DNA of 63,296 nucleotides from positions 1 to 63,296 of the IMG/VR virus record IMGVR_UViG_3300001242_000003; one strand, written 5' to 3'. Shown here piece by piece: positions 1-63,296 of the stretch. Source of the DNA: a virus. The translations under genes and the position numbers were made by a program. Below the pieces are notes generated by a model, which did no database searches, had not been told where the DNA came from, and saw nothing but the letters and a program-made list of their open reading frames with translations. Numbering within the stretch: the first letter of the stretch is position 1; each line of letters begins with the position of its first letter.

Positions 1-1179
1 ACAATAGACAGTAGTAAATTAACTACCGCATCCGTCACACCAGATAAAACAGATTTCATCAAAGAAGTTAAAAATTTATTTGACCATACGGATGCAAAAG
101 TACTTAACCACAGAATTTTAGTAGAAACAGGTGGCACAGACGGTACAGTCTATAGCGACACACGTATGACCACAGGTTATATCCCTGTCAGACCAGGAGA
201 TAACTTAATATGTTCATATTTGAGCACCTCCGGGGTAGTAAGTACAGTTGTTTATTATATCGTAGCAGTTTACGACAAGAATCAAAAACGAATAGTTTTT
301 ACGACGGTAACCAGTTCAACCTATATTGTACCTGCGAATGCTGAATATGTGCGTTTCTCCTTTAATACTTCTTATTACGCGAGAAAAGCATATGTTCAAG
401 TGGCTGTCGGAACTGAAATAAGTTTTCCGACAAAATATAAGAAACAAATGGATATATCTCTCTTGGATAAACCATACAAACCTGTTAAGGATACAATAGC
501 TGAGTTAGTGCAAAATAGTTTATTATTGACTGGCACAAGCACAGTTAACATTAAACTTGTCGGTGATAGTATCACTCATGGGGTAGGCGGTACAGGGTTT
601 TTAGAGGACGGTAATTTAATTATCTCTGGTTTTAACCGTAACCCTAATGGTTATTGTTGGGCGAAACTTTTTAAAGAATATATGGAAGCAAAATTTAATT
701 GTTTGGTAACAAATAACGCCTGTCGTGGCACACACTCAGGTTATTTAAGACAATATTGGGATACTCTAGTCAGTCCCACTGATGATATTGTCATATGTAT
801 GTATGGCACTAATGACCGTGGGTCAGGTGCCTACAGTGCATTATTAGAAAATTTACAGCTTTTTCTAGACAGAGTGGATATAGATAATCAAAAAATAATC
901 TTGATGAGTAGTATTCAAGCATCTGTAACAAATGATGCAACTTACACCTTTCATATGGAAGATGTTGACAATGCAATAATGTCAATAGCAGCCGCAAACA
1001 ACGTAGAATATATTTCTTTATTTAAGTTGTTTAGAGATTATATTGATGCGAGAGGTATTAGTTTTGATACACTCTCTGCTGATGGATTACACCCTAACGA
1101 TGCGGGTTATGATATTATGTTTTATCTTATTTTAAATGCTTTGGGACTGGGTAATAAAGTTAGTGGTGCTACTTGGTAA
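1..1179 (+). CDS. SGNH/GDSL hydrolase tail fibre protein, 5'-truncated by window edge
   Basis: This is the left-end copy of the 403-codon gene at 61363-62574, entering the window in frame at codon 12. It carries the GDSIT block with the catalytic Ser, a GTND block and a DGLHPND block, the hallmarks of SGNH hydrolases that deacetylate or de-esterify surface polysaccharide. The N-terminal half is a beta-rich receptor-binding-type region. It ends at TAA 1177-1179. Full description is given under the intact copy. Confidence 0.9.
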   Translation, partial: TIDSSKLTTASVTPDKTDFIKEVKNLFDHTDAKVLNHRILVETGGTDGTVYSDTRMTTGYIPVRPGDNLICSYLSTSGVVSTVVYYIVAVYDKNQKRIVFTTVTSSTYIVPANAEYVRFSFNTSYYARKAYVQVAVGTEISFPTKYKKQMDISLLDKPYKPVKDTIAELVQNSLLLTGTSTVNIKLVGDSITHGVGGTGFLEDGNLIISGFNRNPNGYCWAKLFKEYMEAKFNCLVTNNACRGTHSGYLRQYWDTLVSPTDDIVICMYGTNDRGSGAYSALLENLQLFLDRVDIDNQKIILMSSIQASVTNDATYTFHMEDVDNAIMSIAAANNVEYISLFKLFRDYIDARGISFDTLSADGLHPNDAGYDIMFYLILNALGLGNKVSGATW

Positions 1180-1216
1180 GTTAACTAACGAAGGTACGTA
1201 ATGGAGGTGAAGTAAT

Positions 1217-1366
1217 TTGTTTCCATCAATTTATAATCAAAAACAAATAGATAAACTAAAACATGGCAATATTAAATTTAAAATTATTTATAAAGGTACT
1301 AACATAAACGGTGAAAAATTTTATCATATACGTATTGATTCCTTACCGTTTATTGTCATGCATTAG
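1217..1366 (+). CDS. Small hypothetical protein (49 aa) closing the SGNH fibre cassette
   Basis: It starts at TTG 1217 behind a strong GGAGGTG at 1203-1209 and ends at TAG 1364. The product is small, Lys/Ile rich, has no membrane segment, and I recognise no family. It lies between two copies of an AACTAACGAAGG repeat (1183-1195 and 1377-1388). A similarly sized but unrelated ORF occupies the same place in the second receptor-binding cassette (53958-54104), which suggests a cassette-associated accessory protein, perhaps a fibre chaperone. Confidence 0.6.
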   Translation: MFPSIYNQKQIDKLKHGNIKFKIIYKGTNINGEKFYHIRIDSLPFIVMH

Positions 1367-1374
1367 GCTGTTAC

Positions 1375-1400
1375 CCAACTAACGAAGGTGCGTTAGTTTT
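1375..1400 (+). terminator. Hairpin AACTAACG/CGTTAGTT, cassette-end repeat and likely terminator
   Basis: AACTAACG (1377-1384) pairs with CGTTAGTT (1391-1398) around a 6-nt loop and is followed by a T-rich tract. An almost identical 23-base copy (one mismatch) lies at 54105-54127 at the end of the other fibre cassette. Confidence 0.65.
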
Positions 1401-1432
1401 ATAATATAATAAGCGAAAGGATATATAAAATA

Positions 1433-1861
1433 ATGAATAAGCGTGTTTTGTTTAAAACATTTGAATTAGATGGCAGAAAGTGGCGTATTGGGAAATTTAA
1501 TGCGATGGTAGGTTCATATATTGCATATAAACTTATGGCCGAAGTAATGCCGTTAGGAATAGCGCAACAAGCAGGCATACCGGTTCCAGCTGGCGGAAAA
1601 TCAATGAGTAAGGCAGATTTTATAGAATTACAAAAAGATTGTTTATCTTGTTGTTATGAATTTCTTCCGGCTGGTCCAGCTCCAGTTATTAATGAAAACG
1701 GAACTTTTGGAGTTGAAGACTTAGAAAACAATGTAAAAGTTGTTATGGCTTTAACGATTCAAGCTTTGATTTTTAATGTTTCAGATTTTTTTACAGAAAA
1801 CCTCTTGAGTTCACTAGCCGATTCAATGAAGACTTTAATCCCGCCCGTTGCAAAAATATAA
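1433..1861 (+). CDS. Tail assembly chaperone, short form
   Basis: A 142-aa protein lying directly before the tape measure gene, the standard place of the tail assembly chaperone that binds the tape measure during tail assembly. Its start ATG follows GCGAAAGGATAT. The N-terminal two thirds resemble gpG/XkdN-type chaperones by position and composition rather than by a motif I can name. The gene contains a T7 slippery stretch (1786-1792) that gives a longer form by -1 frameshifting. The right-end copy is at 62828-63256. Confidence 0.7.
   Translation: MNKRVLFKTFELDGRKWRIGKFNAMVGSYIAYKLMAEVMPLGIAQQAGIPVPAGGKSMSKADFIELQKDCLSCCYEFLPAGPAPVINENGTFGVEDLENNVKVVMALTIQALIFNVSDFFTENLLSSLADSMKTLIPPVAKI
1786..1792 (+). 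promoter_or_regulatory. Programmed -1 frameshift site T_TTT_TTT
   Basis: In the zero frame the codons are GAT TTT TTT ACA, a perfect slippery heptamer. Slipping back one base continues in the next frame with TAC AGA AAA and stays open for 80 codons to TAA 2032. The position inside the tail chaperone gene matches the gpG/gpGT arrangement of many tailed phages. Confidence 0.8.
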
Positions 1862-2034
1862 ATGAGTTTCTTTATGCTCCGGTAATAGCTGGAGTTTGGA
1901 AGCAAAAAGAGCTTTGGGATGGAACTTACACTTTTAAGGATTTGTTAGATATACACGAAATGCTGGAGGTTAAGTATGAAAATGAACAGCGGGCTTATGA
2001 TGCAGCCGTAGCAAATAAAGGAGGTGGGCAATAA
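1792..2034 (+). CDS. Tail assembly chaperone, frameshift extension (GT-like)
   Basis: This is the -1 frame extension joined to codons 1-120 of the chaperone gene (1433-1791), giving about 200 aa. The 80 extra residues read like real protein, acidic and rich in Glu, Asn and Tyr (for example EFLYAPVIAGVW and LEVKYENEQRAY), and there is no start codon or ribosome site of their own near the beginning. The TAA stop overlaps the ATG of the tape measure gene by one base, so translation is coupled. Confidence 0.75.
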   Translation, partial: YRKPLEFTSRFNEDFNPARCKNINEFLYAPVIAGVWKQKELWDGTYTFKDLLDIHEMLEVKYENEQRAYDAAVANKGGGQ

Positions 2035-14996: not shown

Positions 14997-15007
14997 GAGT
15001 GAATAGA

Positions 15008-17359
15008 GTGAAGTCAATTAAATTTAGTGATGTTGTTAAGGTAGTGTATCCTGAATATGTGTATTTTAAATTAACGCCTGACAATTCAGCAAGAAATAAT
15101 TCTACTTACAAAATAGCTAAAACGATTAGTTCATTGTATAAAAATATTTTGCATAATGTTAAACGGGAGCAAGCAAAGGTTATTAAATTAACTGGCATTA
15201 AAAAGGATTTTTTATTTGGTACGAAATATTCAATTATGTTAAATCATAAAACTTCTTATTATATATATATTGAAAAACAAAAAATTGAGTTTTATTTTAT
15301 AGTGCCTAGATATTGTTTAAGCGTTATGTCGGAAAAGCTTAATGATGTTTGGCCAAATATTACTATTAGTGAGGTAAAAGAAGTTCCTGCATTTAGTGAA
15401 AAAGCTACCAAGCACCAACTCTTTTATAATAAAGAGGACGGCTTGAGCTTATCAGTTGACCGTAGGGCAAATGAATTGCTGGAAAGTAATCTTAATATAG
15501 TAGATGTTTTACATGATGGTGATAAAGTTGGTATATTTTATAACTTTATGCCGATATCGCAGTTTGGTTGGAAAGCTCAGTATAGGTCGACATTAGAAAA
15601 AGTCTCTAAGAGCTTGCCTGTTGAGCGTAATAAGTTAGGGCTAAGTTACTTGCTCAAGTCAGCTTTTGCGCTTGTTTATGGGCTTCTGAATAGCCTTGGT
15701 GAAGCTTTTGCTGGTGCTACTCCGCACATGTTGACTAAAGGAAATGAATTATTGTTTTTAGAAACCTTAAAGCAATTTAATGATAGCAAGAAAGTTTCAG
15801 ATGCAACAATTAAGAAAGGAAATGATATAGTTTTAAATACTCAAATATTAGTGCTAAGTGAAAGTTCCGATGAGGTTAGACAATTAAACAATGCAAAAAG
15901 CTTAGCACAAAGTTTTGATGCAGTAACTGAAGATAACAGCTTGATTTATAAGCAAACTTATAAAGATTTTAAGCCATTAAGTTTTTCACTAGGAACCGAA
16001 ATAAATAAAGTAAGTTCAGTTGAATGCTCAAGCTTTATAGCTTTGCCTGGTAAGGAATTGTTAGAAAAGTATTCATGTATAAATAAAATAAAAACGCAGG
16101 AAACACAGGTACCGGAAGAGCTTCAACATGGTGTTATGTGTTTAGGAGTTAATACGTTTAAAGGCAACAAACAATTAGCTTATTTAAGTACAGATTTTGA
16201 TTACCAGATGTTAAGTTTAGTCTTAATTGGGCCTAACCGGGCAGGTAAATCAAAGTTTTTGGCTAATATAGCTAAGAATGCTATTGATGAAGGAGAATGT
16301 GTAATACTGCCGGACTTTATAGGAAGTTGCCAGCTTAGTTCAGAGATAGCTAGTTGTATTGACAAAAGTAAAGTCCTTGAAGTGTATTGTGATAACTGGG
16401 ATACTTTACAAGGGCTTGGTTTTAATGAAGTTCCGCATAGTAATAATCCGTTCGTGCAATATAAAAATGCTAAGGAACAAACTGCCTTATTAATGACCTT
16501 AGTGGATAGTATAAACTCAGATGATGCTAATTTCACAGCTAGAATGGGACGGTACTTTGAAGCTGCAAGTTTAGCAGTATTTTTATCAAATGGCAGTATA
16601 AAAGATGTATTCGCAGTATTAATGAATAACAATGTTAGACGTGAATTTATAAATAAAATACCAAGCTCCCAAAAGGAAAATATGAAGGAGTATATCGAAT
16701 ACCTTTTAGAACTAAATCATATCGAAAAAGGTGTAATAGTAGGTACTAAAATACATTTGATCACTGGAGCAGTTGATAGGCTGCAAAAACTTAAAGTGAA
16801 TGCTTACTTAGAGTTAATGCTTAAAAAGGGTACAAAAGGCAATATTAATTTAGTCAAGGAAATGCAAAAGAATCAGCTTATTGTGATTAAAATGCCACAG
16901 AGAATGTTTCTAACTGATAATGAAAAAGATGTATATGTAACATATTGGTTAACGAAATTGTGGCTTGCCTTACAAATACGTGAGGAGCAGGTAGGGAATA
17001 GAAACAAATTGATTAAGGTAAACATGATAATTGATGAACTTTATCAAGTAAACAACGCTGAAAAGTTTCTTACTAAGAAACTAAGCCAGCTTCCTAAATT
17101 TAACCTAAAACCTATAATAAGTTGCCATTACTTAAATCAAATTAGATTCATTAGAGAAGAATTAAGAAGCGCAAACGCCAGTTATATGCTGATTGCGGGG
17201 TGCGATAAAAAGAACTTTAGTGAACTACAAAGTGAGCTTTACCCGTATACAGAGAATGATTTGTTAAGTTTGCCACGTTACCACAGCTTAAATCTAATTA
17301 AGTGTAATGACGGATATGGAAAATTTATAACGCATTTGCCAAAGCCACTTTCAAAATAA
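15008..17359 (+). CDS. VirD4/TraG-HerA-type P-loop ATPase
   Basis: About 783 aa, starting at GTG 15008 six bases after AGGAGTG (GTG 14999 lies inside that site). It shows Walker A GPNRAGKS near residues 408-415, Walker B VNMIIDE near 671-677 and a downstream ISCHYLNQ segment, the signature of the FtsK/HerA branch that includes T4SS coupling proteins and VirB4. The N-terminal 330 residues form a domain I cannot name. A packaging role is unlikely because a normal large terminase is present. It is probably membrane-associated through the two preceding proteins. Confidence 0.75.
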   Translation: MKSIKFSDVVKVVYPEYVYFKLTPDNSARNNSTYKIAKTISSLYKNILHNVKREQAKVIKLTGIKKDFLFGTKYSIMLNHKTSYYIYIEKQKIEFYFIVPRYCLSVMSEKLNDVWPNITISEVKEVPAFSEKATKHQLFYNKEDGLSLSVDRRANELLESNLNIVDVLHDGDKVGIFYNFMPISQFGWKAQYRSTLEKVSKSLPVERNKLGLSYLLKSAFALVYGLLNSLGEAFAGATPHMLTKGNELLFLETLKQFNDSKKVSDATIKKGNDIVLNTQILVLSESSDEVRQLNNAKSLAQSFDAVTEDNSLIYKQTYKDFKPLSFSLGTEINKVSSVECSSFIALPGKELLEKYSCINKIKTQETQVPEELQHGVMCLGVNTFKGNKQLAYLSTDFDYQMLSLVLIGPNRAGKSKFLANIAKNAIDEGECVILPDFIGSCQLSSEIASCIDKSKVLEVYCDNWDTLQGLGFNEVPHSNNPFVQYKNAKEQTALLMTLVDSINSDDANFTARMGRYFEAASLAVFLSNGSIKDVFAVLMNNNVRREFINKIPSSQKENMKEYIEYLLELNHIEKGVIVGTKIHLITGAVDRLQKLKVNAYLELMLKKGTKGNINLVKEMQKNQLIVIKMPQRMFLTDNEKDVYVTYWLTKLWLALQIREEQVGNRNKLIKVNMIIDELYQVNNAEKFLTKKLSQLPKFNLKPIISCHYLNQIRFIREELRSANASYMLIAGCDKKNFSELQSELYPYTENDLLSLPRYHSLNLIKCNDGYGKFITHLPKPLSK

Positions 17360-19313: not shown

Positions 19314-20197
19314 GTAGTTTAATAGATAACATCAAGGATCAGATTAAAAGATCTGGCGCTAATAAAGGCAAATTTTTATATTTTAAGCCTGGTGTGAAGG
19401 TAAGGATTAGGTTCCTTCAAGACCTGGATGACGGCATGAAAGTAAAATTTCATGATAGTTTTACGCTTGGTGTAAATGTACCATGCCAAGAAGTATTTGG
19501 CCGTGATTGTGATAAGTGCGAAATGGAAGGTTTAAGGCACCGGGACCAATATATTTGGTCAGTTTTTGACCATGACGCAAAAGAAACAAGATTTTTAATG
19601 GGAGCAGCAAATAATGCTTCACCCGTGCCAGCGCTTGTAGGAATGTATGAAGCTTATGGAACTTTGACTGATAGGGATTATGTTATAACCAAAATAGGTC
19701 AAGGTACTGCAACAACTTATCAAGTAGTACCAATGGATAAGGTTAAGTTCCGTAATGAAAAAGCTAAGCCATATAGCGAGAAAAAGACGTTGGAATTGCT
19801 TGATAAAGCTTTTCCGGATGAAGATAGAGATGATGAAGATGACAAACCAGCTAAAGGGAATAAAAAGCCAAGTAAATCAAATAAAAATAAAGAAACTGCT
19901 GATTATGATGATATGTCAGCTAAAGAATTGTATAGCCTTTGCCAGGAGCGTGATATTGCTTGTAAGCCAAGGAAAAGTGAAGATTATTATATTGAATTGC
20001 TTGAAGAATGGGACGAAGAGCAGAAAGAAGCGGATAGCGATGGTAAGGTAGATTATGAAGAGCTGTCTGCTAAAGAGTTGTACAAGCTTTGCCAAGAGCG
20101 AGATATTGAATGCAAGCCCAGAAAAAGTGAAGATTATTATATTGAGATTTTGGAGGAAGATGATGCTGAAAATGGCGGAGACAAGGATGATTGGTAA
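19310..20197 (+). CDS. Phage single-strand DNA-binding protein with tandem SAP-like tail
   Basis: A 295-aa protein starting at TTG 19310 behind AGGAGG and overlapping the primase stop. Residues 1-160 match phage gp32-type SSB proteins (YFKPGVKVRIRFLQD, a Cys cluster CDKCEMEG). The acidic, Lys-rich tail holds two nearly identical 34-residue copies (MSAKELYSLCQERDI and LSAKELYKLCQERDI) that look like SAP/HeH-type DNA-binding motifs, and it ends in Asp/Glu residues as SSB tails do. Confidence 0.75.
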   Translation: MSSLIDNIKDQIKRSGANKGKFLYFKPGVKVRIRFLQDLDDGMKVKFHDSFTLGVNVPCQEVFGRDCDKCEMEGLRHRDQYIWSVFDHDAKETRFLMGAANNASPVPALVGMYEAYGTLTDRDYVITKIGQGTATTYQVVPMDKVKFRNEKAKPYSEKKTLELLDKAFPDEDRDDEDDKPAKGNKKPSKSNKNKETADYDDMSAKELYSLCQERDIACKPRKSEDYYIELLEEWDEEQKEADSDGKVDYEELSAKELYKLCQERDIECKPRKSEDYYIEILEEDDAENGGDKDDW

Positions 20198-20540
20198 AAA
20201 AAATGGATTAACTAATATTTTTAATCAGCAAGCTGCATTTCAAAAGCTTATAACTTCAATTGATTTGCCTAGCGATAATGTCGTTTGGTCATCGTATCAT
20301 ATTTTAGGACTTCAGGAAGAAATTGGCGAAGTGCTTAAAGCAGATAAACGCTGGAAAACTCATAGAAATGCAGCATATGATCCTGAAAACAAATTAGATG
20401 AAATAGTTGATTGTTTTATAACGCTTGTTAATATAGCTTTGTTTTCCGGGTTTGGTTCGCAAGAAATTTATAGTGCTATTGAAAATAAAATTAAAGAGAA
20501 TGTCGAAAGGTTGGATGATAGTGATGGAGAACAACAATAG
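20163..20540 (+). CDS. MazG-like all-alpha NTP pyrophosphohydrolase
   Basis: About 125 aa, starting at ATG 20163 six bases after GGAGG (ATG 20187 is an alternative). The metal-binding motifs EExxE (Glu52, 53, 56) and ExxD (Glu80, Asp83) define the MazG/dimeric dUTPase/T4 dCTPase superfamily, which hydrolyses (d)NTPs to (d)NMP and PPi. It overlaps the carbamoyltransferase gene. In this context it could remove dCTP so that modified cytosine is used and dCMP is supplied. The substrate is inferred from context. Confidence 0.8.
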   Translation: MLKMAETRMIGKKNGLTNIFNQQAAFQKLITSIDLPSDNVVWSSYHILGLQEEIGEVLKADKRWKTHRNAAYDPENKLDEIVDCFITLVNIALFSGFGSQEIYSAIENKIKENVERLDDSDGEQQ

Positions 20541-22305
20541 CGAAAAGTTTTATCTTGGTATTAGCTTAGGGTTTAATTCTTCGGCTTGCGTTATGTCAAA
20601 TAAACGTGGTTTGATAGCAGCTGTTTCACAAGAAAGGTTATGTGGAATTAAGAATACGAAAGAGTTCCCGGTTGATGCGATAATTGAATGCATCAAATTG
20701 GCTAAAGCTCCTTTTAGTTATAAATTTGATGTTGGTATAAGCCATTACCAGCATATAACAGCGGAAAATATTTACAAGTATCTGCCGGAAAAATATAAAG
20801 ATTATATGGGAACTTTTCATAATGTTTGTTTATTCGGCCTTGATTATGTTGAAGATTGCCTAAAAGCCTTGGCTTGCGTTTTAGTAAATTCAATAGTCAG
20901 GGTTGAACATCATACAGCTCATGCTTATGCAGCTTTAGTCATGCATGGCAAAGATGCAAATATGTCGGATGATAGAAATATATTTGTTACTTGTGATGGT
21001 TTTGGTGACGGAACCAGCGGAAGGATAGTGCTTGGCTCCGGTGAGGTGCTTGCTAGTTTAAGGCTAGTTGATAGCGTCGGATTGTTTTATCAGTTTGTAA
21101 CTGGAGCTTTGGGTTATAAAGAACATCAACATGAAGGTAAAATAACTGGCTTGGCTGCGTTTGGTAAGCCAATTTATGTAGAGAAGTTAGTCGAAGTATA
21201 TAGCCAAATGTTATCAGTCGATTTAAGTAAAGAGCAAAGCTCAGAGGTAAAAGCGAGTAATATTGAAAACTTTAATTTATTTTTACGCTTAAAAGATAGC
21301 ACTTATAAGCTAGTTAATTGCTTGCTTGGTAGCGGAGCATTGCCGGAGGATATTGCTGCTTCGGTTCAATTCTTTACTGAAATGGTAATAATTAATTGGC
21401 TTAATAGCACTATTGAAAAATACACTAAAAAAACTATTAATTTCCCTTTGTTTAATGTGTATTTTTCAGGCGGGCTTTTTGCAAATGTAAAACTTAATCA
21501 AAAGATTCATGCTTTACCTTGGGTTGAAAATATTTATGTATGTCCAGCAATGGGTGATGAAGGAACTTGTATTGGTGCAGCTTTTCACGCTATGAAAGAA
21601 AAAATAGGTATGGAAGTTATAGAAGCTAATAGCTTTCTAAAGCATCAGGTTAGCCCGTATCTGGGAACAAAGCATGAATATAGTGCAGAGCAAGTAATAT
21701 TGGAATTGGCTAATTTAAGAGCTTCTGAAAGTGTTTGTGTACATGAGCTTGAAGATGCACAACTTATTAATTGCATTGCTAAACATCTTACGAATAAGAA
21801 AATAGTTTGTTTATTCCGTGGCAGAATGGAATTTGGTCCAAGAGCGTTAGGTAATCGGTCAATACTTTATCATTGCACGGACCGAACAGTTAATATGTGG
21901 CTAAATGAACAACTTGGTAGAACTGAATTTATGCCGTTTGCTCCGATATGCAAAATGGAAAATGCTGGGGCTTTATTTGACAAAATTGGCGCTGAGCAAA
22001 CAGCGGAATATATGACAATAACATTTAATTGCTCAGATGAATTCAAAAATAACTATCCAGCAGCCTGTCATATAGATGGAACTGCCAGACCGCAGTTAGT
22101 AACGAAAGAAGCTAATAGATTTATGTGGAACTTATTGGACAAGTATGAGTCAATTTCATGTCAGAAAGTCCTAATTAATACTAGCTTTAATTTGCATAAT
22201 TTTCCTATCATTGAAAGCCCTGAGGATGCAATTCAAAGTTGGTTTGATTCAAATACTGATGTATTAGTAATAAATAATGTAGTCATAGAGAGGATGGTAA
22301 AGTAA
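20524..22305 (+). CDS. NodU/TobZ-type carbamoyltransferase
   Basis: A 593-aa enzyme. The N-terminal Kae1-like domain shows the metal motif HxxxH (His129, His133), Asp158 in CDGFGDG, and Asp345 in GDEG. The C-terminal domain has the family signature FRGRMEFGPRALGNRS (431-446) and a late VLINTSFN. The family forms carbamoyladenylate from carbamoyl phosphate and ATP and moves the carbamoyl group to a hydroxyl. Phage members are known to carbamoylate 5-hydroxymethylcytosine. It sits between MazG and the dCMP hydroxymethylase-like fusion, which strongly suggests DNA base modification. GTG 20521 is an alternative start. Confidence 0.92.
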   Translation: MENNNSEKFYLGISLGFNSSACVMSNKRGLIAAVSQERLCGIKNTKEFPVDAIIECIKLAKAPFSYKFDVGISHYQHITAENIYKYLPEKYKDYMGTFHNVCLFGLDYVEDCLKALACVLVNSIVRVEHHTAHAYAALVMHGKDANMSDDRNIFVTCDGFGDGTSGRIVLGSGEVLASLRLVDSVGLFYQFVTGALGYKEHQHEGKITGLAAFGKPIYVEKLVEVYSQMLSVDLSKEQSSEVKASNIENFNLFLRLKDSTYKLVNCLLGSGALPEDIAASVQFFTEMVIINWLNSTIEKYTKKTINFPLFNVYFSGGLFANVKLNQKIHALPWVENIYVCPAMGDEGTCIGAAFHAMKEKIGMEVIEANSFLKHQVSPYLGTKHEYSAEQVILELANLRASESVCVHELEDAQLINCIAKHLTNKKIVCLFRGRMEFGPRALGNRSILYHCTDRTVNMWLNEQLGRTEFMPFAPICKMENAGALFDKIGAEQTAEYMTITFNCSDEFKNNYPAACHIDGTARPQLVTKEANRFMWNLLDKYESISCQKVLINTSFNLHNFPIIESPEDAIQSWFDSNTDVLVINNVVIERMVK

Positions 22306-23820
22306 ATGCCGTATTTAAAAGTTAATTCAGTAACAGAAGCTTTTAGCTCGGTTGTTGCACTTTTGGAAGCAGAAGGTTTTGAAACTGCCCCTAGAGGAAT
22401 GAAAATAAAAGAAGTGCTTAATTGTTGTATTGAAGTAACTAATCCCCGGGATAGAATTGTACAAAATCCTGAAAGGCAAATGAATTTTTCTTACGCTGTT
22501 GGCGAATTGCTTTGGTATTTAAGCGGGCGCAATGATGTAGGTACTATGGAGTATTATTCAAAGAAAATGGCTAATTTTTCAGACGATGGTAAAACATTAA
22601 ATTCAGCTTATGGCCATAGAATTTTTGGTAATAATGCTAAGATTGGCTTTAACCAATGGGAACATGTAAAGCAACAGCTTATTGCCGATCCGGATTCACG
22701 GCAAGCAATAATTCATTTGCATACTCCAAATAACCAGAAAACAAAAGATGAAGTTTGCACGTTAAGCTTGCAATTTTTGCTCAGGCATGGTAAACTAAAT
22801 CTTATTGTTAATATGCGCTCAAATGATATTGTGCTTGGCTTTACGTACGATGCTTTTGCGTTTACTATGTTGCAGGAAATTATGGCAATTGAACTTGGCG
22901 TTGAATTAGGAAGCTACTTCCATAATGCTGGAAGTATGCACATGTATGAGCGTGATTTTAATACTTATAGTAAAATAACTTATAAAGTTAATTCAATGCC
23001 GATGTTGCCGCTGAACATGGTTTTAACGGATTTTGATCGCTTAATTGATTATGAAGCTTTTTGCAGGGATTTTAATAATAGTTTTAAAGAAGTAATTGAT
23101 TATACCACCTCAATGTTAGTTGCAAGTAAAAATAGTAATGAAAGAATATTTATGATTTCTTTAGCTATTTGGACAGTTATACGGCGCGGATATAGTTTCG
23201 CTTGTACTAAATATGTTAATAATTTTATTAATATAAGCCGCAGAATTGATGAGCGCTTTGCAGATATTCTTGCAGCAGGAAATAGTGTTTTTACTAAGAA
23301 CGATTTTAAAGTAATAATTGAAGGTGTAGATGCTAGTGGTAAAACATCTTTAGCGAACGCTTTAGCGCTTAATATTAATGGCTTAGCTTTATCAATACAG
23401 CATTATGACGCACCAACTAAAAACTTTGCTTTTTATTCAGCGTATAAAAGCGCCTTACAAAGTAAAGTTAGCACTATATTTGATAGGTTCTTTTTCTCAG
23501 AAATTGCCTATTCAAAAGCTATAGGCAAAGAATGCAGAATTAACGAAGTTAGGCAAAACTTGCTCTTAGGTATTATTTCAATATCTGGTTTTGTATGCGT
23601 TTTCTTTGTGTTTAATGACTTAGAGCTTGATTTGGTAATAAGCCGAATGGATGCTAAAGATTATGATAAATATGTTAAATCAGGGCTTATTTACAAAATT
23701 AATAGTGCTTACAAAGATCTTTGTGAAAGGGCTGAAAGGCATGGTTGCAAGGTGATAAAAGTAACTAAAGCTAATTATGATGTTGAACAAGTTATTGAGC
23801 AAATTAAAGGAGCTTTATAA
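22306..23820 (+). CDS. dCMP hydroxymethylase-like enzyme fused to P-loop nucleotide kinase
   Basis: A 504-aa fusion. Residues 1-300 are a thymidylate-synthase fold: Glu67 in GELLWYL, catalytic Cys151 in DEVCTLS, RSND (171-174) and His212/Tyr214 (MHMYERD). The residue eight after RSND's Asp is Asp182, where dUMP-specific TS has Asn; Asp is diagnostic of dCMP hydroxymethylases such as T4 gp42. Residues 330-504 are a thymidylate-kinase-like domain with Walker A EGVDASGKTS (339-348) and DR at 393-394. It would make 5-hydroxymethyl-dCMP and phosphorylate it. The ATG follows the carbamoyltransferase stop without a gap. Confidence 0.88.
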   Translation: MPYLKVNSVTEAFSSVVALLEAEGFETAPRGMKIKEVLNCCIEVTNPRDRIVQNPERQMNFSYAVGELLWYLSGRNDVGTMEYYSKKMANFSDDGKTLNSAYGHRIFGNNAKIGFNQWEHVKQQLIADPDSRQAIIHLHTPNNQKTKDEVCTLSLQFLLRHGKLNLIVNMRSNDIVLGFTYDAFAFTMLQEIMAIELGVELGSYFHNAGSMHMYERDFNTYSKITYKVNSMPMLPLNMVLTDFDRLIDYEAFCRDFNNSFKEVIDYTTSMLVASKNSNERIFMISLAIWTVIRRGYSFACTKYVNNFINISRRIDERFADILAAGNSVFTKNDFKVIIEGVDASGKTSLANALALNINGLALSIQHYDAPTKNFAFYSAYKSALQSKVSTIFDRFFFSEIAYSKAIGKECRINEVRQNLLLGIISISGFVCVFFVFNDLELDLVISRMDAKDYDKYVKSGLIYKINSAYKDLCERAERHGCKVIKVTKANYDVEQVIEQIKGAL

Positions 23821-23822
23821 TT

Positions 23823-26510
23823 ATGTGGTTTGAACTGCATAAGCACACACATTTTAGTTTATTTGATGGATTTGGTCTTATAGGTGATGTTGTAAAGCGG
23901 GCTGTTGAATTGGACATGCCCGCTTTGGCGGTAACAGACCATGGAAATACCTGCGGATTAGCTAAACTATATTTCACTTGTAAAGACAAAGGTATTAAGC
24001 CAATACTCGGTGTAGAAGTTTATTTTCAGCCTAAGTTCAATAAAGAAAATAAAACTAATCATCTATGCTTATTTGCTAAGAATCAGCAAGGTTATTCTAA
24101 TATAATGAGGATAATAACTGAAGCAAATGAGGAAAATTTTTATTATAAAGGTATAGTAACCTTTGAGCTGTTAGAAAAGTATAATGAAGGTGTGATATGT
24201 TCTTCAGGTTGTTTAGCTGGCTTTATACCGCAAGCAATTTTAAATAATAATAAAGAGCTTGCGGTAAAAGCTATCAAGAAATTTAAAAGAATATTTGGTG
24301 AAGATTTTTACTTTGAAATAATGCCTATACCAGTTGATAAAGTAGGAACACAAGAGAAAGTTAATAAAATCATGTATAAACTTGGTGAAAGGTATAATAT
24401 TGGTTGTATACCAACGACTGATTCGCATTATACTAGAGCGGAGGATTTTCCATCGTATAAGGTGATGCATAAAATAGCTGGCACTAAGTATGATATAGAG
24501 CAAACATACAAAGACCGGTATATGCACAGTGAAGCCGAGATAAAGGAACGGCTTCATAACGAAGGATTTACTAAAAGTCAAGTAAGAAATATGCTCAATA
24601 ACATGGAAGAAATTTATAACAAAATAAACATTGAGCTTGACTTTTCAGAATCAATTCCAGTGCTTGGCAGTGGTGATTCGTATGAGCAACTTAAAGAGCG
24701 TTGCAAAGAAGCTCTTAAAAAGTATTTGAAAAAGCGCGGTTTAATGCATAAAAAACGTACATATTTAGACAGGTTGAGAACTGAACTAGAAGTTATTGAA
24801 TCGCACCACTTATCAGACTATTTTTTAATAGTAGCTGATTATGTAGATGAAGCTAAAAGACGTGATATATATGTTGGTCCTGGTAGGGGCTCAGTATGTG
24901 CTTCACTTATAGCTGATTTACTTGGTATAACAGATGTTGATCCAGTTGAAATCGGAAATGACTTTGCTAGATTTTTGCGCTTGGACAAAAAGAAAATGCC
25001 GGACATTGACTTGGATTTTGAATATGGCAAGCGTGATGAAATAACTGAATATTTGTTACAAAAGAATAAAGGAAACTCAGCGCAAGTTATTACTTTTGGA
25101 TTAAATCGTACTAAAAATCTTTGTAATGATTTGATAAAGGTGTTTGAAGTTTACGAAGATGATGCAGTTATTTTTCGTAAATATATTTCTAAGCATGTAG
25201 ATGATAATCGTCTTGTAAAAATGATGGACATTGATTATGAGGCGATACTTAAAGAGCCTGGAATGGCGCAAATAAATAAAAAGTATGACAATATAGTAAT
25301 CCATTTTTGTAAGCTGTATGGACAAATAAAGTATTATGGAACACATGCTGCTGGTGTAGTTATTACCAATGGACCAATTAAGAACTATATTTCCTTGGTA
25401 AAATACAAAGGTAAGTTGGCAACATGTTACGACAAGTTTGATTGTGAAGATCTTGGATTCTTAAAATTTGATATTCTCGGTTTAAAGACGCTAAATATTC
25501 TGCATGATATCGAGGAGCTTACGGGAGAACGATATGATTATAGGACAGCACCAGAAAGAACTAAAACTGCTATTTATGAAGGTTTTAGAACTGGTAAAAC
25601 TTCAGGTGTATTTCAATTAGGAAGCGGAACGGCTAAAGATATTTTAACCTCAATAGGCACGGATAATTTGCAGGATTTAATTGCAGCTATATCATTAAAT
25701 CGTCCAGGGCCTTTATCATTAACAATGCATGAAAAGTATGCAGAGAATAAATTAAATCCGCCTAAAGATTCCGCTTGGTATGAATATACGGCAGACACAA
25801 ATGGCACTTTAATTTACCAAGAACACGTTATGCAAATATGTAAAGGCCTTGCCGGATTGGACTATAATACGGCTGATAAAATATTCAAATGGCGCATGAC
25901 GGAAGAAGAAAGAAACAAAGTTTGTAATTTATTTGTAGAAGGAGCACACAAAGTTAGTGGAGTTGATAAGCAAGAAGCTCATGATTTATTCTATAGCATG
26001 TCAAGCTATTTGTTTAATAAAGGTCATGCTTCCGGCTATGCAGTAATTTCTGAATGGCATATGTACCACAAACTTTTTCATCCAACTGAATTTTGGTATG
26101 CCAGCATGAAGTATGAAATTGATGAGAAGAAGAAGTTTGAATTTCAGGCTGAAGCCGCTGCTGATGGTGTATTATTTTTCTTACCTCATGTAAATTATAC
26201 AGCTGATTATTCAATCCGCAAAGTTGAAGGCGAAAGTGTAGTTCAGCAAGGTTTGACTTCAATCAAAAACGTAGGTCAAAAAGCTGCTGAAACTATTGAA
26301 TATGAGCGCAGGCTTAATGGTTTTTATAAAAGCTATGATGACTTCTTGGATAGAGTTCCAAAGCGCCAAGTAAATTCAAGAGTAGTTGAATGTTTGCTCG
26401 AACAAGGTGCATTGGAATTTAACAAGAAAACTTATTTAAAGCGTACTATTAAATACAATTCTGTGCTATATATGAAAGGCCTTAGAGTTAAGAATAATTG
26501 TACTATATAG
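23823..26510 (+). CDS. DNA polymerase III alpha subunit, DnaE-like
   Basis: An 895-aa replicative polymerase. It has an N-terminal PHP domain (HKHTHFSLFDG, TDHGN, GVEVYF), the catalytic PDIDLDF near residues 393-399, GPGRGS, the third Asp in KFDILG near 547, and a helix-hairpin-helix (IKNVGQKAA) near 813. It is shorter than host DnaE because the C-terminal OB and tau-binding parts are missing. Being in one operon with the modification enzymes suggests it accepts the modified nucleotide. AAAGGAG serves as ribosome site. Confidence 0.92.
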   Translation: MWFELHKHTHFSLFDGFGLIGDVVKRAVELDMPALAVTDHGNTCGLAKLYFTCKDKGIKPILGVEVYFQPKFNKENKTNHLCLFAKNQQGYSNIMRIITEANEENFYYKGIVTFELLEKYNEGVICSSGCLAGFIPQAILNNNKELAVKAIKKFKRIFGEDFYFEIMPIPVDKVGTQEKVNKIMYKLGERYNIGCIPTTDSHYTRAEDFPSYKVMHKIAGTKYDIEQTYKDRYMHSEAEIKERLHNEGFTKSQVRNMLNNMEEIYNKINIELDFSESIPVLGSGDSYEQLKERCKEALKKYLKKRGLMHKKRTYLDRLRTELEVIESHHLSDYFLIVADYVDEAKRRDIYVGPGRGSVCASLIADLLGITDVDPVEIGNDFARFLRLDKKKMPDIDLDFEYGKRDEITEYLLQKNKGNSAQVITFGLNRTKNLCNDLIKVFEVYEDDAVIFRKYISKHVDDNRLVKMMDIDYEAILKEPGMAQINKKYDNIVIHFCKLYGQIKYYGTHAAGVVITNGPIKNYISLVKYKGKLATCYDKFDCEDLGFLKFDILGLKTLNILHDIEELTGERYDYRTAPERTKTAIYEGFRTGKTSGVFQLGSGTAKDILTSIGTDNLQDLIAAISLNRPGPLSLTMHEKYAENKLNPPKDSAWYEYTADTNGTLIYQEHVMQICKGLAGLDYNTADKIFKWRMTEEERNKVCNLFVEGAHKVSGVDKQEAHDLFYSMSSYLFNKGHASGYAVISEWHMYHKLFHPTEFWYASMKYEIDEKKKFEFQAEAAADGVLFFLPHVNYTADYSIRKVEGESVVQQGLTSIKNVGQKAAETIEYERRLNGFYKSYDDFLDRVPKRQVNSRVVECLLEQGALEFNKKTYLKRTIKYNSVLYMKGLRVKNNCTI

Positions 26511-27315: not shown

Positions 27316-28254
27316 TTGGCAAAAACTAATAAAGAAAAAATAATGCAGCTATGTAAGCAGATTGACCAAAAGGAAGGTGCAGGAAGTATATTTAGCCTAG
27401 GCTCTAAAAATTCAGTGTTAAAGATTCCTCGTTGGTCAACTGGCATTGAGGATCTAGATCACATACTGGGTGGCGGAATGCCTGAAGGTAGAATAATTGA
27501 GATATTTGGCCCAGAATCAAGCGGGAAAACTAGCTTAGGTTACCATTTGTCCAGTCTACATGAGCTTTGCTTAAATATACCGATTGAAGGAACTTTTGAT
27601 GCTAATAGAGCTAAGCAGTTTGGTAATAGACCTAAACAAATGCTTGTATATAGAGCAAAATATGGTGAAGCAGCACTTAATAGGGCTATGAAGTTTGCTG
27701 AATCAGGTATTCCATTAATCGTCATTGACAGCGTTCCGGCATTAAAGCCTAAGGAAGATATCGAAAAGCTCAAGAAAAATATCAACAATGATAAAGAGGA
27801 AAATGATCGTATGGGCGGAGTTGCCCGTTTGCTTCATAGGTACGTGCCGATGCTCGAAGAAGTTGTTGAATTTTCCGGCACTACAATTATTTTTATTAAT
27901 CAGGTGCGGGATAAAATGGATGCAATGTTATTTGGTGAAAAAACAGATACACCAGGTGGTAGGGCCTTAAAATTTTATAGTAGTATTAGATTACAAGTAG
28001 CTAGAAAAAGCTGGATTGAAATACCAAATAAAGATCCAAGAAATTCCGCTGTTAATGAAAAAGTTGGTATGATTATGAAAGTTAAAGTAATTAAAAGCAA
28101 AGTTTGTAATCCAATGGGTGAAGCTGAATTGCCAATGTTCTTCAAGCATAATTTTGTTAGCTTTGATGATATTTCAGTGCTTAGAAAACAGCTTATGGCT
28201 GATAGCAGGAAAAAGCGTGGCAATAGTGAGGAGGATGAAGATGGTGAGGAATAG
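27316..28254 (+). CDS. recA: RecA recombinase
   Basis: A 312-aa protein starting at TTG 27316 behind AAAGGGTG. Walker A GPESSGKTS at 65-73 is identical in place and sequence to bacterial RecA. It also has LIVIDSVPAL (Walker B), the L1-like MGGVARLLHR region and FINQVRDK (L2 entry), ending in an acidic tail. It is about 40 residues shorter than host RecA, and the region usually occupied by MAW/YID motifs around residue 100 reads GTFDANRAKQ. It promotes strand exchange for phage recombination and repair. Confidence 0.9.
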   Translation: MAKTNKEKIMQLCKQIDQKEGAGSIFSLGSKNSVLKIPRWSTGIEDLDHILGGGMPEGRIIEIFGPESSGKTSLGYHLSSLHELCLNIPIEGTFDANRAKQFGNRPKQMLVYRAKYGEAALNRAMKFAESGIPLIVIDSVPALKPKEDIEKLKKNINNDKEENDRMGGVARLLHRYVPMLEEVVEFSGTTIIFINQVRDKMDAMLFGEKTDTPGGRALKFYSSIRLQVARKSWIEIPNKDPRNSAVNEKVGMIMKVKVIKSKVCNPMGEAELPMFFKHNFVSFDDISVLRKQLMADSRKKRGNSEEDEDGEE

Positions 28255-28654
28255 ACCTAGTAAGGATGCTTATTATTTTGGCATAGCGGAAGCAGTAAGT
28301 AAGCGTAGTACATGCCTCAGGCGCCAATATGGCGCAGTTATTATCAAAGATGATGAAGTAATAGCGACAGGATATAATGGCTCTCCTAGAGGTTCTGAGA
28401 ACTGTTGTGACAGTGGTATATGCTATAGAATAGATAACGACATTCCTCGTGGTACGCAATATGAAAAATGTCAAAGCGTTCATGCAGAACAAAACGCTAT
28501 TATATCAGCAAGGCGCTCAGATATGAAGGGTGGCATATTATATTTATATTGTTTTGATGTCATACTTGGTAAAGCAATGCGACCAGAACCATGTTTAATT
28601 TGCCAGCGTTTAATTAAAAATGCAGGATTAGAGGTTAAGCTATGTCAATGTTAA
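28241..28654 (+). CDS. dCMP deaminase
   Basis: A 137-aa zinc deaminase starting at ATG 28241 behind GAGGAGG and overlapping the recA end. Zinc ligands are HAE (His81, catalytic Glu83) and PCxxC (Cys118, Cys121). The extra Cys residues near 55-61 (NCCDSGIC) correspond to the second zinc site of phage dCMP deaminases. It converts dCMP to dUMP for ThyA (36758-37588). Together with the MazG-like enzyme and the dCMP hydroxymethylase-like fusion it closes a phage-directed dCMP supply route. Confidence 0.9.
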   Translation: MVRNRPSKDAYYFGIAEAVSKRSTCLRRQYGAVIIKDDEVIATGYNGSPRGSENCCDSGICYRIDNDIPRGTQYEKCQSVHAEQNAIISARRSDMKGGILYLYCFDVILGKAMRPEPCLICQRLIKNAGLEVKLCQC

Positions 28655-31239: not shown

Positions 31240-31392
31240 ATGCCAGATAGAAGTTGTCATGGGTGGAAGCTTAAAGATAATTATGAGCCAAAGCCAATGG
31301 AAAAAGTTATCGCTAAATGTTGTGGTGTCTGCAAATATTATTGCCCTGTGTATTGTTGCAAACATCCTTTATATAAGCCATGCAAAGACTAA
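31240..31392 (+). CDS. Cysteine-rich small protein
   Basis: A 50-aa protein with AGGAGG ribosome site. Nine Cys, including KCCGVCKYYCPVYCCKH, indicate a metal-binding knuckle. No family recognised. It overlaps the next gene by 13 bases. Confidence 0.6.
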   Translation: MPDRSCHGWKLKDNYEPKPMEKVIAKCCGVCKYYCPVYCCKHPLYKPCKD

Positions 31393-32231
31393 CTACTATT
31401 ATCAATATAAACTTAACTAAGCAGCCGTATGACGTTTATATAGGCCGTGGAAGCTTGTTTGGTAATCCGTTTTATATAGGAGTCCATGGCAATCGTAAAG
31501 AAGTAATAGAGTTATACAAACAATACATACTAAATAGCCCTGAACTACTCAAAGCTGCTAAAGCACTAAAAGGAAAAGTATTAGGCTGCCATTGTAAACC
31601 TGCTCCCTGCCATGGTGATATACTTGTAAATATAGCGAATGGAGTTTTAAAAGTGTATAATAAATTAATTATTGGCATTGATCAAAGTTACACCCGTACC
31701 GGCATTGCTATAGCTGCTGATGGTAAGCTATTAAAGGTTAGTAGCTTAGCCTTCAAAGGCCTTCATAGCCCCACAGAGAAGCGTAAACATCTAACTAATG
31801 TACTAACCCGTATACTTGACCTTAACGCTCACAAGGCTTCTGAGTGCTATGTCATATGCGAGCGTATAAGAACTTTTTCACACAACAACAATGATAATAG
31901 TCAAAATCAAATGTTTATTAGCACTAATTATATTAAGTCAGCTGGCGCTTTAGTAGCTACTATTGTAGATGTTGCTAATAGTTATGGTGTTAAAGTTTAT
32001 AGCGCAGACACAAGAAGTTGGAAAGCTCAAATTGTTGGTACAAGTAAAGCCAGTCAGTCCGGTAACAAAAAACTTGCTACTATTAAGCATGTTATAAATT
32101 TAGGTTTTAGCTCCAGTGTTACCTCAGTTAACAGAAATGGTAAAACTGTTTATGACGATGATGCCTGCGACGCTGCTTGTATTGCTCTATATGGCTTCCA
32201 CAAGAACCAGAAGTTGAAAATAGAGAAGTAA
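31380..32231 (+). CDS. DUF4326-RuvC-like fusion
   Basis: A 283-aa protein. Residues 15-85 match DUF4326 (YIGRGSLFGNP, LGCHCKPAPCHGD), a small phage-associated domain of unknown function. Residues 95-283 are an RNase H-fold RuvC-type domain with acidic residues Asp101 (GIDQSYTRTG), Glu161 (ICERI) and Asp260/263 (DDDACDAA). The RuvC part should resolve Holliday junctions during recombination or before packaging. The fusion itself is unusual. Confidence 0.75.
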   Translation: MQRLTTIININLTKQPYDVYIGRGSLFGNPFYIGVHGNRKEVIELYKQYILNSPELLKAAKALKGKVLGCHCKPAPCHGDILVNIANGVLKVYNKLIIGIDQSYTRTGIAIAADGKLLKVSSLAFKGLHSPTEKRKHLTNVLTRILDLNAHKASECYVICERIRTFSHNNNDNSQNQMFISTNYIKSAGALVATIVDVANSYGVKVYSADTRSWKAQIVGTSKASQSGNKKLATIKHVINLGFSSSVTSVNRNGKTVYDDDACDAACIALYGFHKNQKLKIEK

Positions 32232-36402: not shown

Positions 36403-36761
36403 GAAAAGTAGATATTAAAACAGTTTGCAAGTATAATGGCCATAGTATTAAAGCAAATGAGGCAGTTGATCTCTCATTGAAGTTCGGATATGATCAACTT
36501 GTAAACTACATACAATTGGTTCAGCTGTTGAATGAAAATATTAATATTATTTCAAAAATAGGCGATAGCAAGCCTATAAAGCTTGGAATATATACGCTGA
36601 AAGAAGTTAAGATTGATAATGACGGTGAAGCGGTTATAAAGTTTAATAGTACACTTAGCTATGTAGAAGCTGACAATTTAAACAAGTTAGCTGGTGAGAT
36701 GCTTAAAGTGCGCTTTAAGGCTGACGTAGAAATAGAAAATGATGGAGAGGATGAAGATTGA
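36390..36761 (+). CDS. Hypothetical protein (123 aa)
   Basis: GTG start overlapping the previous gene. It is acidic at the end (EIENDGEDED) with alternating strands and helices. No family recognised. It overlaps the ThyA start by 4 bases, so these genes are co-translated. Confidence 0.6.
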   Translation: MAEVRKVDIKTVCKYNGHSIKANEAVDLSLKFGYDQLVNYIQLVQLLNENINIISKIGDSKPIKLGIYTLKEVKIDNDGEAVIKFNSTLSYVEADNLNKLAGEMLKVRFKADVEIENDGEDED

Positions 36762-37588
36762 GCAAAGCTGATAATATGTTCATTAAAATGTGCAGGGATA
36801 TTCTTTCAAATGGAATTAGCTCAGAAGGTGAACAGGTAAGGCCAAAATGGGAGGATGGAACTTCAGCTCATACTATTAAAAAGTTTTGTGTTGTTAACAG
36901 GTATGACTTATCAAATGAATTTCCTATACTTACTTTAAGGCCTACTAATTTAGAAGCTGCAATTGACGAACTGCTTTGGATATGGCAGAAGAAATCAAAT
37001 AATATTAAGAATCTTGGCAGTAGTATTTGGGATAGTTGGGCTAATGAAGATGGCTCGATAGGAAAAGCGTATGGATATCAGTTGGGTATTAAGCATGAAT
37101 ACCCAGAAGGATTATTTGACCAAGTTGACAGAGTATTGTATGATTTAAAGCATAATTCCTATAGTAGAAGGATTATAGTGAATATGTACAACCACAATGA
37201 CCTACATGAAATGAACTTATATCCTTGTGCATATAGTATGACATTTAATGTTACCGGTAAGAAACTTAATGCGATACTAAATCAGCGATCACAAGATGTT
37301 TTAGTTGCAAATAACTGGAATGTATCCCAGTACGCTATATTAATTCATATGTTCGCACAAGTAAGCGATCTTGAAGTTGGCGAATTTGTTCATGTTATTG
37401 CCGATGCTCATATTTATGATAGGCATGTTCCGCTTGTGAAAGAGCTTATTCAGAGAACTTCATTTCCAGCTCCGAGACTAAAAATAAATGTAAGTGTAAA
37501 AGATTTTTATCAATTTAAAGTAGATGATTTTATGCTTAAAGATTATAAGCACGGAATGCAGATTAAAAATATTTCAGTAGCTATTTAA
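36758..37588 (+). CDS. thyA: Thymidylate synthase
   Basis: A 276-aa ThyA, TTG start. Conserved sites: Glu71 (DELLWIW), catalytic Cys157 (NLYPCAYS), QRSQD (176-180) and Asn188, the Asn that binds the uracil ring of dUMP, then ADAHIYDRH. It methylates dUMP with methylene-tetrahydrofolate. The Asn contrasts with Asp182 in the TS-like part of the fusion at 22306, so the two paralogues should use dUMP and dCMP respectively. The C-terminus ends with the usual Ala-Ile type residues. Confidence 0.92.
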   Translation: MSKADNMFIKMCRDILSNGISSEGEQVRPKWEDGTSAHTIKKFCVVNRYDLSNEFPILTLRPTNLEAAIDELLWIWQKKSNNIKNLGSSIWDSWANEDGSIGKAYGYQLGIKHEYPEGLFDQVDRVLYDLKHNSYSRRIIVNMYNHNDLHEMNLYPCAYSMTFNVTGKKLNAILNQRSQDVLVANNWNVSQYAILIHMFAQVSDLEVGEFVHVIADAHIYDRHVPLVKELIQRTSFPAPRLKINVSVKDFYQFKVDDFMLKDYKHGMQIKNISVAI

Positions 37589-62574: not shown

Positions 62575-62611
62575 GTTAACTAACGAAGGTACGTAATGGA
62601 GGTGAAGTAAT

Positions 62612-62761
62612 TTGTTTCCATCAATTTATAATCAAAAACAAATAGATAAACTAAAACATGGCAATATTAAATTTAAAATTATTTATAAAGGTACTAACAT
62701 AAACGGTGAAAAATTTTATCATATACGTATTGATTCCTTACCGTTTATTGTCATGCATTAG
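62612..62761 (+). CDS. Small hypothetical protein (49 aa), right-end copy
   Basis: Second copy of the TTG-start ORF at 1217-1366, identical in sequence. Confidence 0.6.
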   Translation: MFPSIYNQKQIDKLKHGNIKFKIIYKGTNINGEKFYHIRIDSLPFIVMH

Positions 62762-62769
62762 GCTGTTAC

Positions 62770-62795
62770 CCAACTAACGAAGGTGCGTTAGTTTT
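62770..62795 (+). terminator. Cassette-end hairpin, right-end copy
   Basis: Second copy of the hairpin at 1375-1400. Confidence 0.65.
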
Positions 62796-62827
62796 ATAAT
62801 ATAATAAGCGAAAGGATATATAAAATA

Positions 62828-63256: not shown

Positions 63257-63296
63257 ATGAGTTTCTTTATGCTCCGGTAATAGCTGGAGTTTGGAA

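What the first reader, a model, noticed from the sequence alone, without database searches (positions are those of the whole stretch)
20163..23820. Candidate 5-carbamoyloxymethylcytosine DNA hypermodification operon
Seen: MazG-like pyrophosphatase, NodU/TobZ carbamoyltransferase with complete catalytic motifs, and a TS-family enzyme with Asp at the dCMP-determining position fused to a nucleotide kinase, all adjacent or overlapping and followed directly by the phage polymerase. Known: T4 uses a dCTPase, dCMP hydroxymethylase and dNMP kinase to build hydroxymethylcytosine DNA, and a viral carbamoyltransferase acting on 5-hydroxymethylcytosine has been described. Inference: this phage makes 5-hydroxymethyl-dCTP and carbamoylates it before or after polymerisation.
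Basis: partly seen in the sequence, partly recalled or inferred. Interest (0 to 1): 0.93.

Follow-up and report, generated by a model that had tools for sequence, protein, structure and literature searches.

The report
Phage pathway for carbamoylated hydroxymethylcytosine DNA
A complete phage genome carries a tight gene set that very probably swaps its cytosine for hydroxymethylcytosine and caps it with a carbamoyl group to hide its DNA from bacterial enzymes; the chemistry was described in 2021, but this version has a new fused enzyme and a separate branch of the capping enzyme.

Summary
Window 20163-23820 holds, in one tight run, a MazG/dUTPase_2-like pyrophosphatase, a NodU/TobZ-type carbamoyltransferase (CTase) and a thymidylate-synthase-fold enzyme fused to a P-loop nucleotide kinase, ending 2 bp before DNA polymerase III alpha. 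The TS domain passes every residue test I could find for a dCMP 5-hydroxymethylase: it fits dCMP, deoxyribose, hydroxymethyl and folate. A second TS elsewhere in the window (36758-37588) is ordinary dUMP type. In public data the association is nearly absolute: after removing near-duplicates, 53 of 56 phage CTase loci in two clades have a dCMP-type TS within 8 kb, against 0 of 11 other phage CTases and 0 of 72 cellular ones.
What is new is narrower. This CTase is only 27% identical to that enzyme, lies outside its clade, and keeps Gly/Arg where that clade has Cys/Thr. The hydroxymethylase-kinase fusion recurs in two related phages and is unfused but adjacent in three more. No activity or mass-spectrometry evidence exists here; whether carbamoylation precedes or follows polymerisation is open.

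The parts
20163..20540 (+). MazG/dUTPase_2-like all-alpha NTP pyrophosphatase; proposed dCTPase (dCTP to dCMP + PPi), T4 gp56-like role
   Evidence: PF08761 23.3 bits (cut-off 22.9), phrog_173 3e-8; EExxE/ExxD motif; Shine-Dalgarno GGAGG; 55% and 46% identical genes in the same place in L013 and L017. Substrate not tested.
20524..22305 (+). NodU/TobZ-type carbamoyltransferase, proposed 5-hydroxymethyl-dC(TP)/DNA carbamoyltransferase
   Evidence: Pfam N and C domains; 27% identical to the verified enzyme with catalytic motifs kept; clade of 7, all next to a dCMP hydroxymethylase
22306..23025 (+). TS-fold domain (about aa 1-240): dCMP 5-hydroxymethylase
   Evidence: E60, S94, Y96, R123, D145, C148, S169, D171, D179 in T4 gp42 numbering all present; best PDB match MilA CMP 5-hydroxymethylase 6e-41
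23281..23820 (+). Fused P-loop nucleotide kinase (about aa 326-504), proposed hydroxymethyl-dCMP kinase
   Evidence: GVDASGKT Walker A and FDRFF..S; phrog_761 3.5e-11; thymidylate kinase 3ld9 4.8e-5; Foldseek thymidylate kinases and YorR among the top hits, low-confidence model; stand-alone kinase next to the hydroxymethylase in L002, L014, L015
23823..26510 (+). DNA polymerase III alpha subunit that would use the modified nucleotide
   Evidence: PF07733 6.7e-59, PHP, fingers; TIGR00594 618 bits
28235..28654 (+). dCMP deaminase; pool balancing as in T4
   Evidence: PF00383 1.9e-15, phrog_174 6.7e-39, HAE and PCxxC motifs
36758..37588 (+). Second TS, ordinary dUMP thymidylate synthase (internal control)
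   Evidence: phrog_160 1e-78; TIGR03284 182.8 bits, above its cut-off of 108; L at -3 of the catalytic Cys and N at position 177

Best explanation
This phage builds hypermodified cytosine by a T4-like precursor route with carbamoylation in place of glucosylation. Proposed steps: (1) the MazG-like enzyme hydrolyses dCTP to dCMP (inferred); (2) the TS domain adds CH2OH to C5 of dCMP from methylene-tetrahydrofolate (strongly supported by residues); (3) the fused kinase phosphorylates 5-hydroxymethyl-dCMP to the diphosphate, and host NDK makes the triphosphate (inferred from fusion and adjacency); (4) DNA polymerase III alpha incorporates it; (5) the carbamoyltransferase, using carbamoyl phosphate and ATP, carbamoylates the 5-hydroxymethyl group either on the dNTP or on DNA to give 5-carbamoyloxymethylcytosine (shown in vitro for a relative, inferred here). 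dCMP deaminase and the separate dUMP-type TS keep dTTP supplied. The likely benefit is protection from restriction and other DNA-targeting defence (inferred).
For: TS domain: D179 (dCMP), D145 + S94-x-Y96 (hydroxymethyl signature of PMC6400193), R and S at MilA K133/A176 (deoxyribose, PMC5175136), D171 kept (folate). Contrast with the second TS in the same genome, L at -3 and N177. Co-occurrence: dCMP-type TS beside 46/49 CTases of the verified-enzyme clade and 7/7 of the window clade, 0/11 other phage CTases, 0/72 cellular. Same operon order in L013 and L017, related order in L015, L014, L002. Relative purified and shown to convert 5hmdC DNA and 5hmdCTP but not 5hmdUTP or 5mdCTP, with TS, PRA-PH and dCMP deaminase as neighbours (PMC8670742). 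Cultured phages Xp15, BF486P2 and MD-2021a carry a CTase plus dCMP-type TS cassette.
Against: No biochemical or mass-spectrometry data for this phage. The CTase is only 27% identical to the verified enzyme and lies outside its clade. At the positions that PMC8670742 links to cytosine modification (TobZ W408, G421, R423, assigned here by motif) it has L, G, R; the verified enzyme has I, C, T, and most cellular enzymes share G, R. MazG and kinase substrates are guesses; the MazG match only just passes its cut-off.
Confidence: 0.75

Rival explanations
1. The carbamoyltransferase acts on a non-nucleotide acceptor (surface sugar or metabolite), as in NodU, TobZ or cyanophage gene clusters, and only by chance sits beside a dCMP hydroxymethylase that makes plain 5hmC DNA.
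For: Phage CTases without TS neighbours exist (11 non-redundant loci), and a cyanophage metabolite cluster with CTases is described (PMC7824862). The window enzyme keeps the cellular-type G421/R423.
Against: All 7 members of its clade have a dCMP-type TS nearby, with direct gene contact in the window, L013 and L017 and overlapping or abutting genes in L014 and L015. No sugar or metabolite gene was found in the operon.
Confidence: 0.09
2. The TS-fold domain is a flavin-dependent 5-hydroxy-dCMP synthase (AfhB type, Mosigvirus), so the base would be a carbamate of 5-hydroxycytosine.
For: Foldseek and phmmer both match PDB 9iqc/9iqu, and these enzymes also carry Asp at the cytosine position.
Against: AfhB has MRSQN where folate enzymes have MRSND, Thr for S94 and Glu for D145; the window keeps the folate Asp, Ser and Asp. 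The window matches MilA at 6e-41 against 7e-11 for AfhB.
Confidence: 0.05
3. The TS-fold domain is a ribonucleotide (CMP) hydroxymethylase like MilA, feeding RNA or a small molecule.
For: MilA is the best-scoring solved structure.
Against: The two residues that set the ribose preference, MilA K133 and A176, are Arg and Ser here as in dCMP enzymes. The gene lies in a DNA-replication operon.
Confidence: 0.03
4. 5-carbamoyloxymethylcytosine is only an intermediate (the carbamate being a leaving group) that another phage enzyme converts into a further modification.
For: Phages of this group carry many unassigned genes; a related operon has other decoration genes in the same slot (L008).
Against: No further transferase found next to the operon.
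Confidence: 0.07

Closest known systems
5-hydroxymethylcytosine carbamoyltransferase system (MetaGPA; Yang et al. 2021, PMC8670742)
   Same: CTase with Carbam_trans N and C domains beside a TS with Asp at the cytosine position, a MazG/PRA-PH-type pyrophosphatase and a dCMP deaminase, in phage contigs
   Different: 27% identity; outside its clade (100% SH-aLRT); L/G/R instead of I/C/T at the three associated positions; hydroxymethylase fused to a kinase; operon runs directly into Pol III alpha
T4 hydroxymethylcytosine pathway (gp56 dCTPase, gp42 dCMP hydroxymethylase, gp1 dNMP kinase, beta-glucosyltransferase)
   Same: Same logic of precursor hydroxymethylation followed by capping; all gp42 signature residues shared
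   Different: Carbamoyl cap instead of glucose; hydroxymethylase and kinase in one polypeptide; Pol III alpha instead of gp43
MilA CMP 5-hydroxymethylase (PDB 5b6d, 5jnh)
   Same: Closest solved sequence, hydroxymethylates cytidylate
   Different: Window has Arg/Ser instead of Lys/Ala, so deoxy preference is expected; MilA works in antibiotic synthesis
Mosigvirus 5-hydroxy-dCMP synthase AfhB (PDB 9iqc, 9iqu)
   Same: TS fold, Asp for cytosine, neighbouring annotated thymidylate kinase
   Different: AfhB lacks the folate Asp and makes 5-hydroxycytosine for arabinosylation (PMC13390438)
NodU / TobZ / GdmN O-carbamoyltransferases
   Same: Same two-domain fold and catalytic motifs
   Different: Small-molecule or glycan acceptors; none of 72 non-redundant cellular loci examined has a TS neighbour

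Membership tests
dCMP 5-hydroxymethylase (T4 gp42 type) | Asp at position 179 (E. coli TS N177) for cytosine | tested here: met
dCMP 5-hydroxymethylase (T4 gp42 type) | Asp/Glu three residues before the catalytic Cys and S/T-x-Y motif (water activation, hydroxymethyl not methyl; PMC6400193) | tested here: met
   KDEVC and NSAYG; criteria
dCMP 5-hydroxymethylase (T4 gp42 type) | Arg and Ser for deoxyribose instead of MilA Lys133/Ala176 (PMC5175136) | tested here: met
   alignment; criteria
dCMP 5-hydroxymethylase (T4 gp42 type) | Forms 5-hydroxymethyl-dCMP | not testable with these tools
   Needs an enzyme assay
Thymidylate synthase (dUMP) | Asn at position 177 and hydrophobic residue at -3 of the Cys | tested here: not met
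   Asp and Asp in the finding's TS; met by the second TS at 36758-37588
AfhB-type 5-hydroxy-dCMP synthase | Folate Asp171 replaced (MRSQN) | tested here: not met
   Window has MRSND
MilA-type CMP hydroxymethylase | Lys133 and Ala176 | tested here: not met
   Arg and Ser
5hmC carbamoyltransferase (MetaGPA) | Carbam_trans_N and Carbam_trans_C domains with motifs of the active enzyme | tested here: met
5hmC carbamoyltransferase (MetaGPA) | Next to a dCMP-type TS | tested here: met
   Window and 53 of 56 non-redundant phage loci
5hmC carbamoyltransferase (MetaGPA) | Residues at TobZ W408/G421/R423 as in the verified enzyme (I, C, T) | tested here: not met
   Window L, G, R; its clade L/M/I/Y, C, R/S. 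Column assignment was inferred from the motif, not from a TobZ alignment.
5hmC carbamoyltransferase (MetaGPA) | Same clade as the verified enzyme | tested here: inconclusive
   Outside the 31-row clade holding the verified enzyme (100); the two TS-linked clades together form one side of a branch (98), but the root is unknown
5hmC carbamoyltransferase (MetaGPA) | Transfers carbamoyl to 5hmC | not testable with these tools
   Needs an enzyme assay or LC-MS of virion DNA
Thymidylate-kinase-like dNMP kinase | P-loop kinase with Walker A and DR(F/Y) motifs | tested here: met
   GVDASGKT, FDRFFFSE; phrog_761 3.5e-11; Pfam just under its cut-off
dCTPase / MazG-type all-alpha NTP pyrophosphatase | EExxE...ExxD motif and family profile | tested here: met
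   PF08761 23.3 against 22.9 bits; motif read in the sequence. dCTP specificity not testable

The most novel reading that the evidence does not exclude
In this lineage carbamoylation happens at the nucleotide stage: the fused hydroxymethylase-kinase and the CTase pass 5-hydroxymethyl nucleotides directly to a carbamoylated dNTP that Pol III alpha polymerises. That would be a fully precursor-level hypermodification, unlike T4 glucosylation, carried by a CTase branch separate from the known one and possibly recruited independently.
Probability: 0.25. Interest if true: 0.65.

Novelty: new variant of a known kind. Interest (0 to 1): 0.5.

Why it matters
It shows that carbamoyl capping of 5hmC is more widespread and more diverse than the single purified enzyme suggested, with a second CTase clade and a hydroxymethylase-kinase fusion that assigns a likely function to the unlabelled kinase genes beside phage hydroxymethylases. 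It offers a new candidate enzyme for protecting 5hmC, which is useful in 5hmC sequencing chemistry. Cultured phages with the cassette (Xp15, BF486P2, Acinetobacter HHU4) make the in-vivo question directly testable; I found no paper in the searched library that reports this base in a phage isolate.

Tried and rejected
Rejected: ordinary thymidylate synthase (Asp, not Asn; a separate dUMP TS is present); MilA-type CMP enzyme (Arg/Ser); AfhB-type 5-hydroxy-dCMP synthase, noticed only through Foldseek (folate Asp kept). The paper on 5-hydroxycytosine biosynthesis is not held. I could not decide one or two origins of the 5hmC-linked CTases because the tree has no outgroup.

Full report
What is there. 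The window is a whole virus record whose first and last 1,901 bases are identical, so the genome is a complete 61,395-bp tailed phage with a tail-sheath and baseplate (contractile-tail) module, 35% G+C. Inside its replication operon, primase (18330) and SSB (19310) are followed by a MazG/dUTPase_2-like pyrophosphatase (20163-20540), a carbamoyltransferase (20524-22305), a TS-kinase fusion (22306-23820), DNA polymerase III alpha (23823-26510), RecA (27316), a dCMP deaminase (28235-28654) and an exonuclease (28642).

The TS-fold domain. Published criteria let the substrate be read from residues. Asp179 in T4 gp42 numbering selects cytosine; an Asp three residues before the catalytic Cys together with Ser-x-Tyr activates water and marks hydroxymethylation; Arg and Ser in place of MilA Lys133 and Ala176 mark deoxyribose (PMC6400193, PMC5175136). 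The window domain meets all of them. The same genome has a second TS at 36758-37588 with Leu and Asn at the diagnostic places, a standard dUMP enzyme, so the first is not needed for dTMP. Foldseek raised a rival: the TS-fold 5-hydroxy-dCMP synthase AfhB of Mosigvirus (PDB 9iqc, 9iqu). Aligning a Mosigvirus copy that matches those chains almost residue for residue shows that AfhB has lost the folate Asp (MRSQN), while the window keeps it (MRSND). I therefore hold dCMP 5-hydroxymethylase at about 0.93.

The kinase. The C-terminal 180 residues are a thymidylate-kinase-like P-loop domain. The hydroxymethylase-kinase fusion recurs in two other IMG/VR phages, L013 and L017, with 45-47% identity over the whole protein, in the same order MazG - CTase - fusion - Pol III alpha. 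In L002, L014 and L015 the kinase is a separate gene beside the hydroxymethylase, and the podovirus ct3Et533 has pyrophosphatase - kinase - hydroxymethylase - dCMP deaminase - polymerase without a CTase. This points to a hydroxymethyl-dCMP kinase by gene fusion and adjacency; the substrate was not tested.

The carbamoyltransferase. It has both Pfam domains and the motifs shared with the purified 5hmC carbamoyltransferase. I gathered 80 phage loci and 80 cellular loci with the same alignment. After collapsing near-identical proteins, a dCMP-type TS lies within 8 kb in 46 of 49 members of the clade that holds the verified enzyme, in 7 of 7 of the window's clade, in 0 of 11 other phage CTases and in 0 of 72 cellular ones. 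The sets were gathered with patterns from known members, so the fractions are descriptive, but the contrast is very strong. In the tree the window clade lies outside the verified clade (100); the two TS-linked clades together form one side of a branch (98), but the root is unknown. At the three positions that the MetaGPA authors tied to modification, the verified enzyme has I, C, T; the window clade has mostly L/M/I, C, R, and the window itself L, G, R. So this is a distinct branch, and shared or independent recruitment is unresolved.

Comparison with what is known. Yang et al. 2021 (PMC8670742) found CTases co-occurring with TS, PRA-PH and dCMP deaminase in cytosine-modified phage contigs, showed that TS there mostly has Asp at position 177, purified one CTase, and showed conversion of 5hmdC in DNA and of 5hmdCTP, but not of 5hmdUTP or 5mdCTP. 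The present operon is the same kind of system. New here are the separate CTase branch, the fusion, the complete T4-like set including a second normal TS, and the placement directly upstream of the replicative polymerase. Full-text searches found no further paper on carbamoyloxymethylcytosine in phages within the held library, which excludes most subscription journals and preprints.

Mechanism and certainty. Shown by sequence: gene content, order, catalytic residues, base and sugar specificity residues, conserved association. Shown by others for a relative: 5hmC carbamoylation. Inferred: dCTP removal by the MazG-like protein, phosphorylation of hydroxymethyl-dCMP by the fused kinase, timing of carbamoylation, and the protective role. 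A related operon in Agathobaculum phage AB434P2 keeps the MazG, kinase, hydroxymethylase and polymerase backbone but has sugar-activation-like genes and two unknown proteins in place of the CTase, which fits the idea that the CTase slot is an interchangeable base-decoration module.

Noticed in passing
L008 (Agathobaculum phage AB434P2) 416-5582: Homologous operon where the CTase is replaced by a phosphoheptose-isomerase-like/choline-kinase-like protein, an HldE-like adenylyltransferase and two unknown proteins beside a dCMP hydroxymethylase: possibly a heptose-type hypermodification. The hydroxymethylase is annotated as deoxyuridylate hydroxymethyltransferase but has the dCMP Asp.
   Followed up: partly
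L029-L032, L041, L043, L046, L048, L049, L052, L054: TS-family proteins near verified-clade CTases with E60 replaced by M/I/Q and the folate Asp171 replaced by N/E; some phages have both this and a normal hydroxymethylase. They may be folate-independent (AfhB-like) enzymes.
   Followed up: partly
window 36758-37588: Second TS-family gene, ordinary dUMP thymidylate synthase.
   Followed up: yes
window 1-1901 and 61396-63296: Exact 1,901-bp end overlap, so the record is very probably a complete 61,395-bp genome.
   Followed up: yes
window 19901-20158: Tandem 150-bp repeat (81% identical over 108 bp) encoding a duplicated short C-terminal motif of the SSB-like protein; L017 carries a similar duplication.
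   Followed up: no
window 14999-17359: 786-aa protein with a Walker-A motif (GPNRAGKS) matching only phrog_5156 of unknown function, just upstream of the replication operon.
   Followed up: no
L018-L028, L033-L035: Phage CTases in other clades with no TS neighbour (11 after removing near-duplicates), presumably with non-DNA substrates.
   Followed up: partly
window 31380-32231: DUF4326 domain fused to a RuvC-like Holliday junction resolvase domain in one ORF.
   Followed up: no
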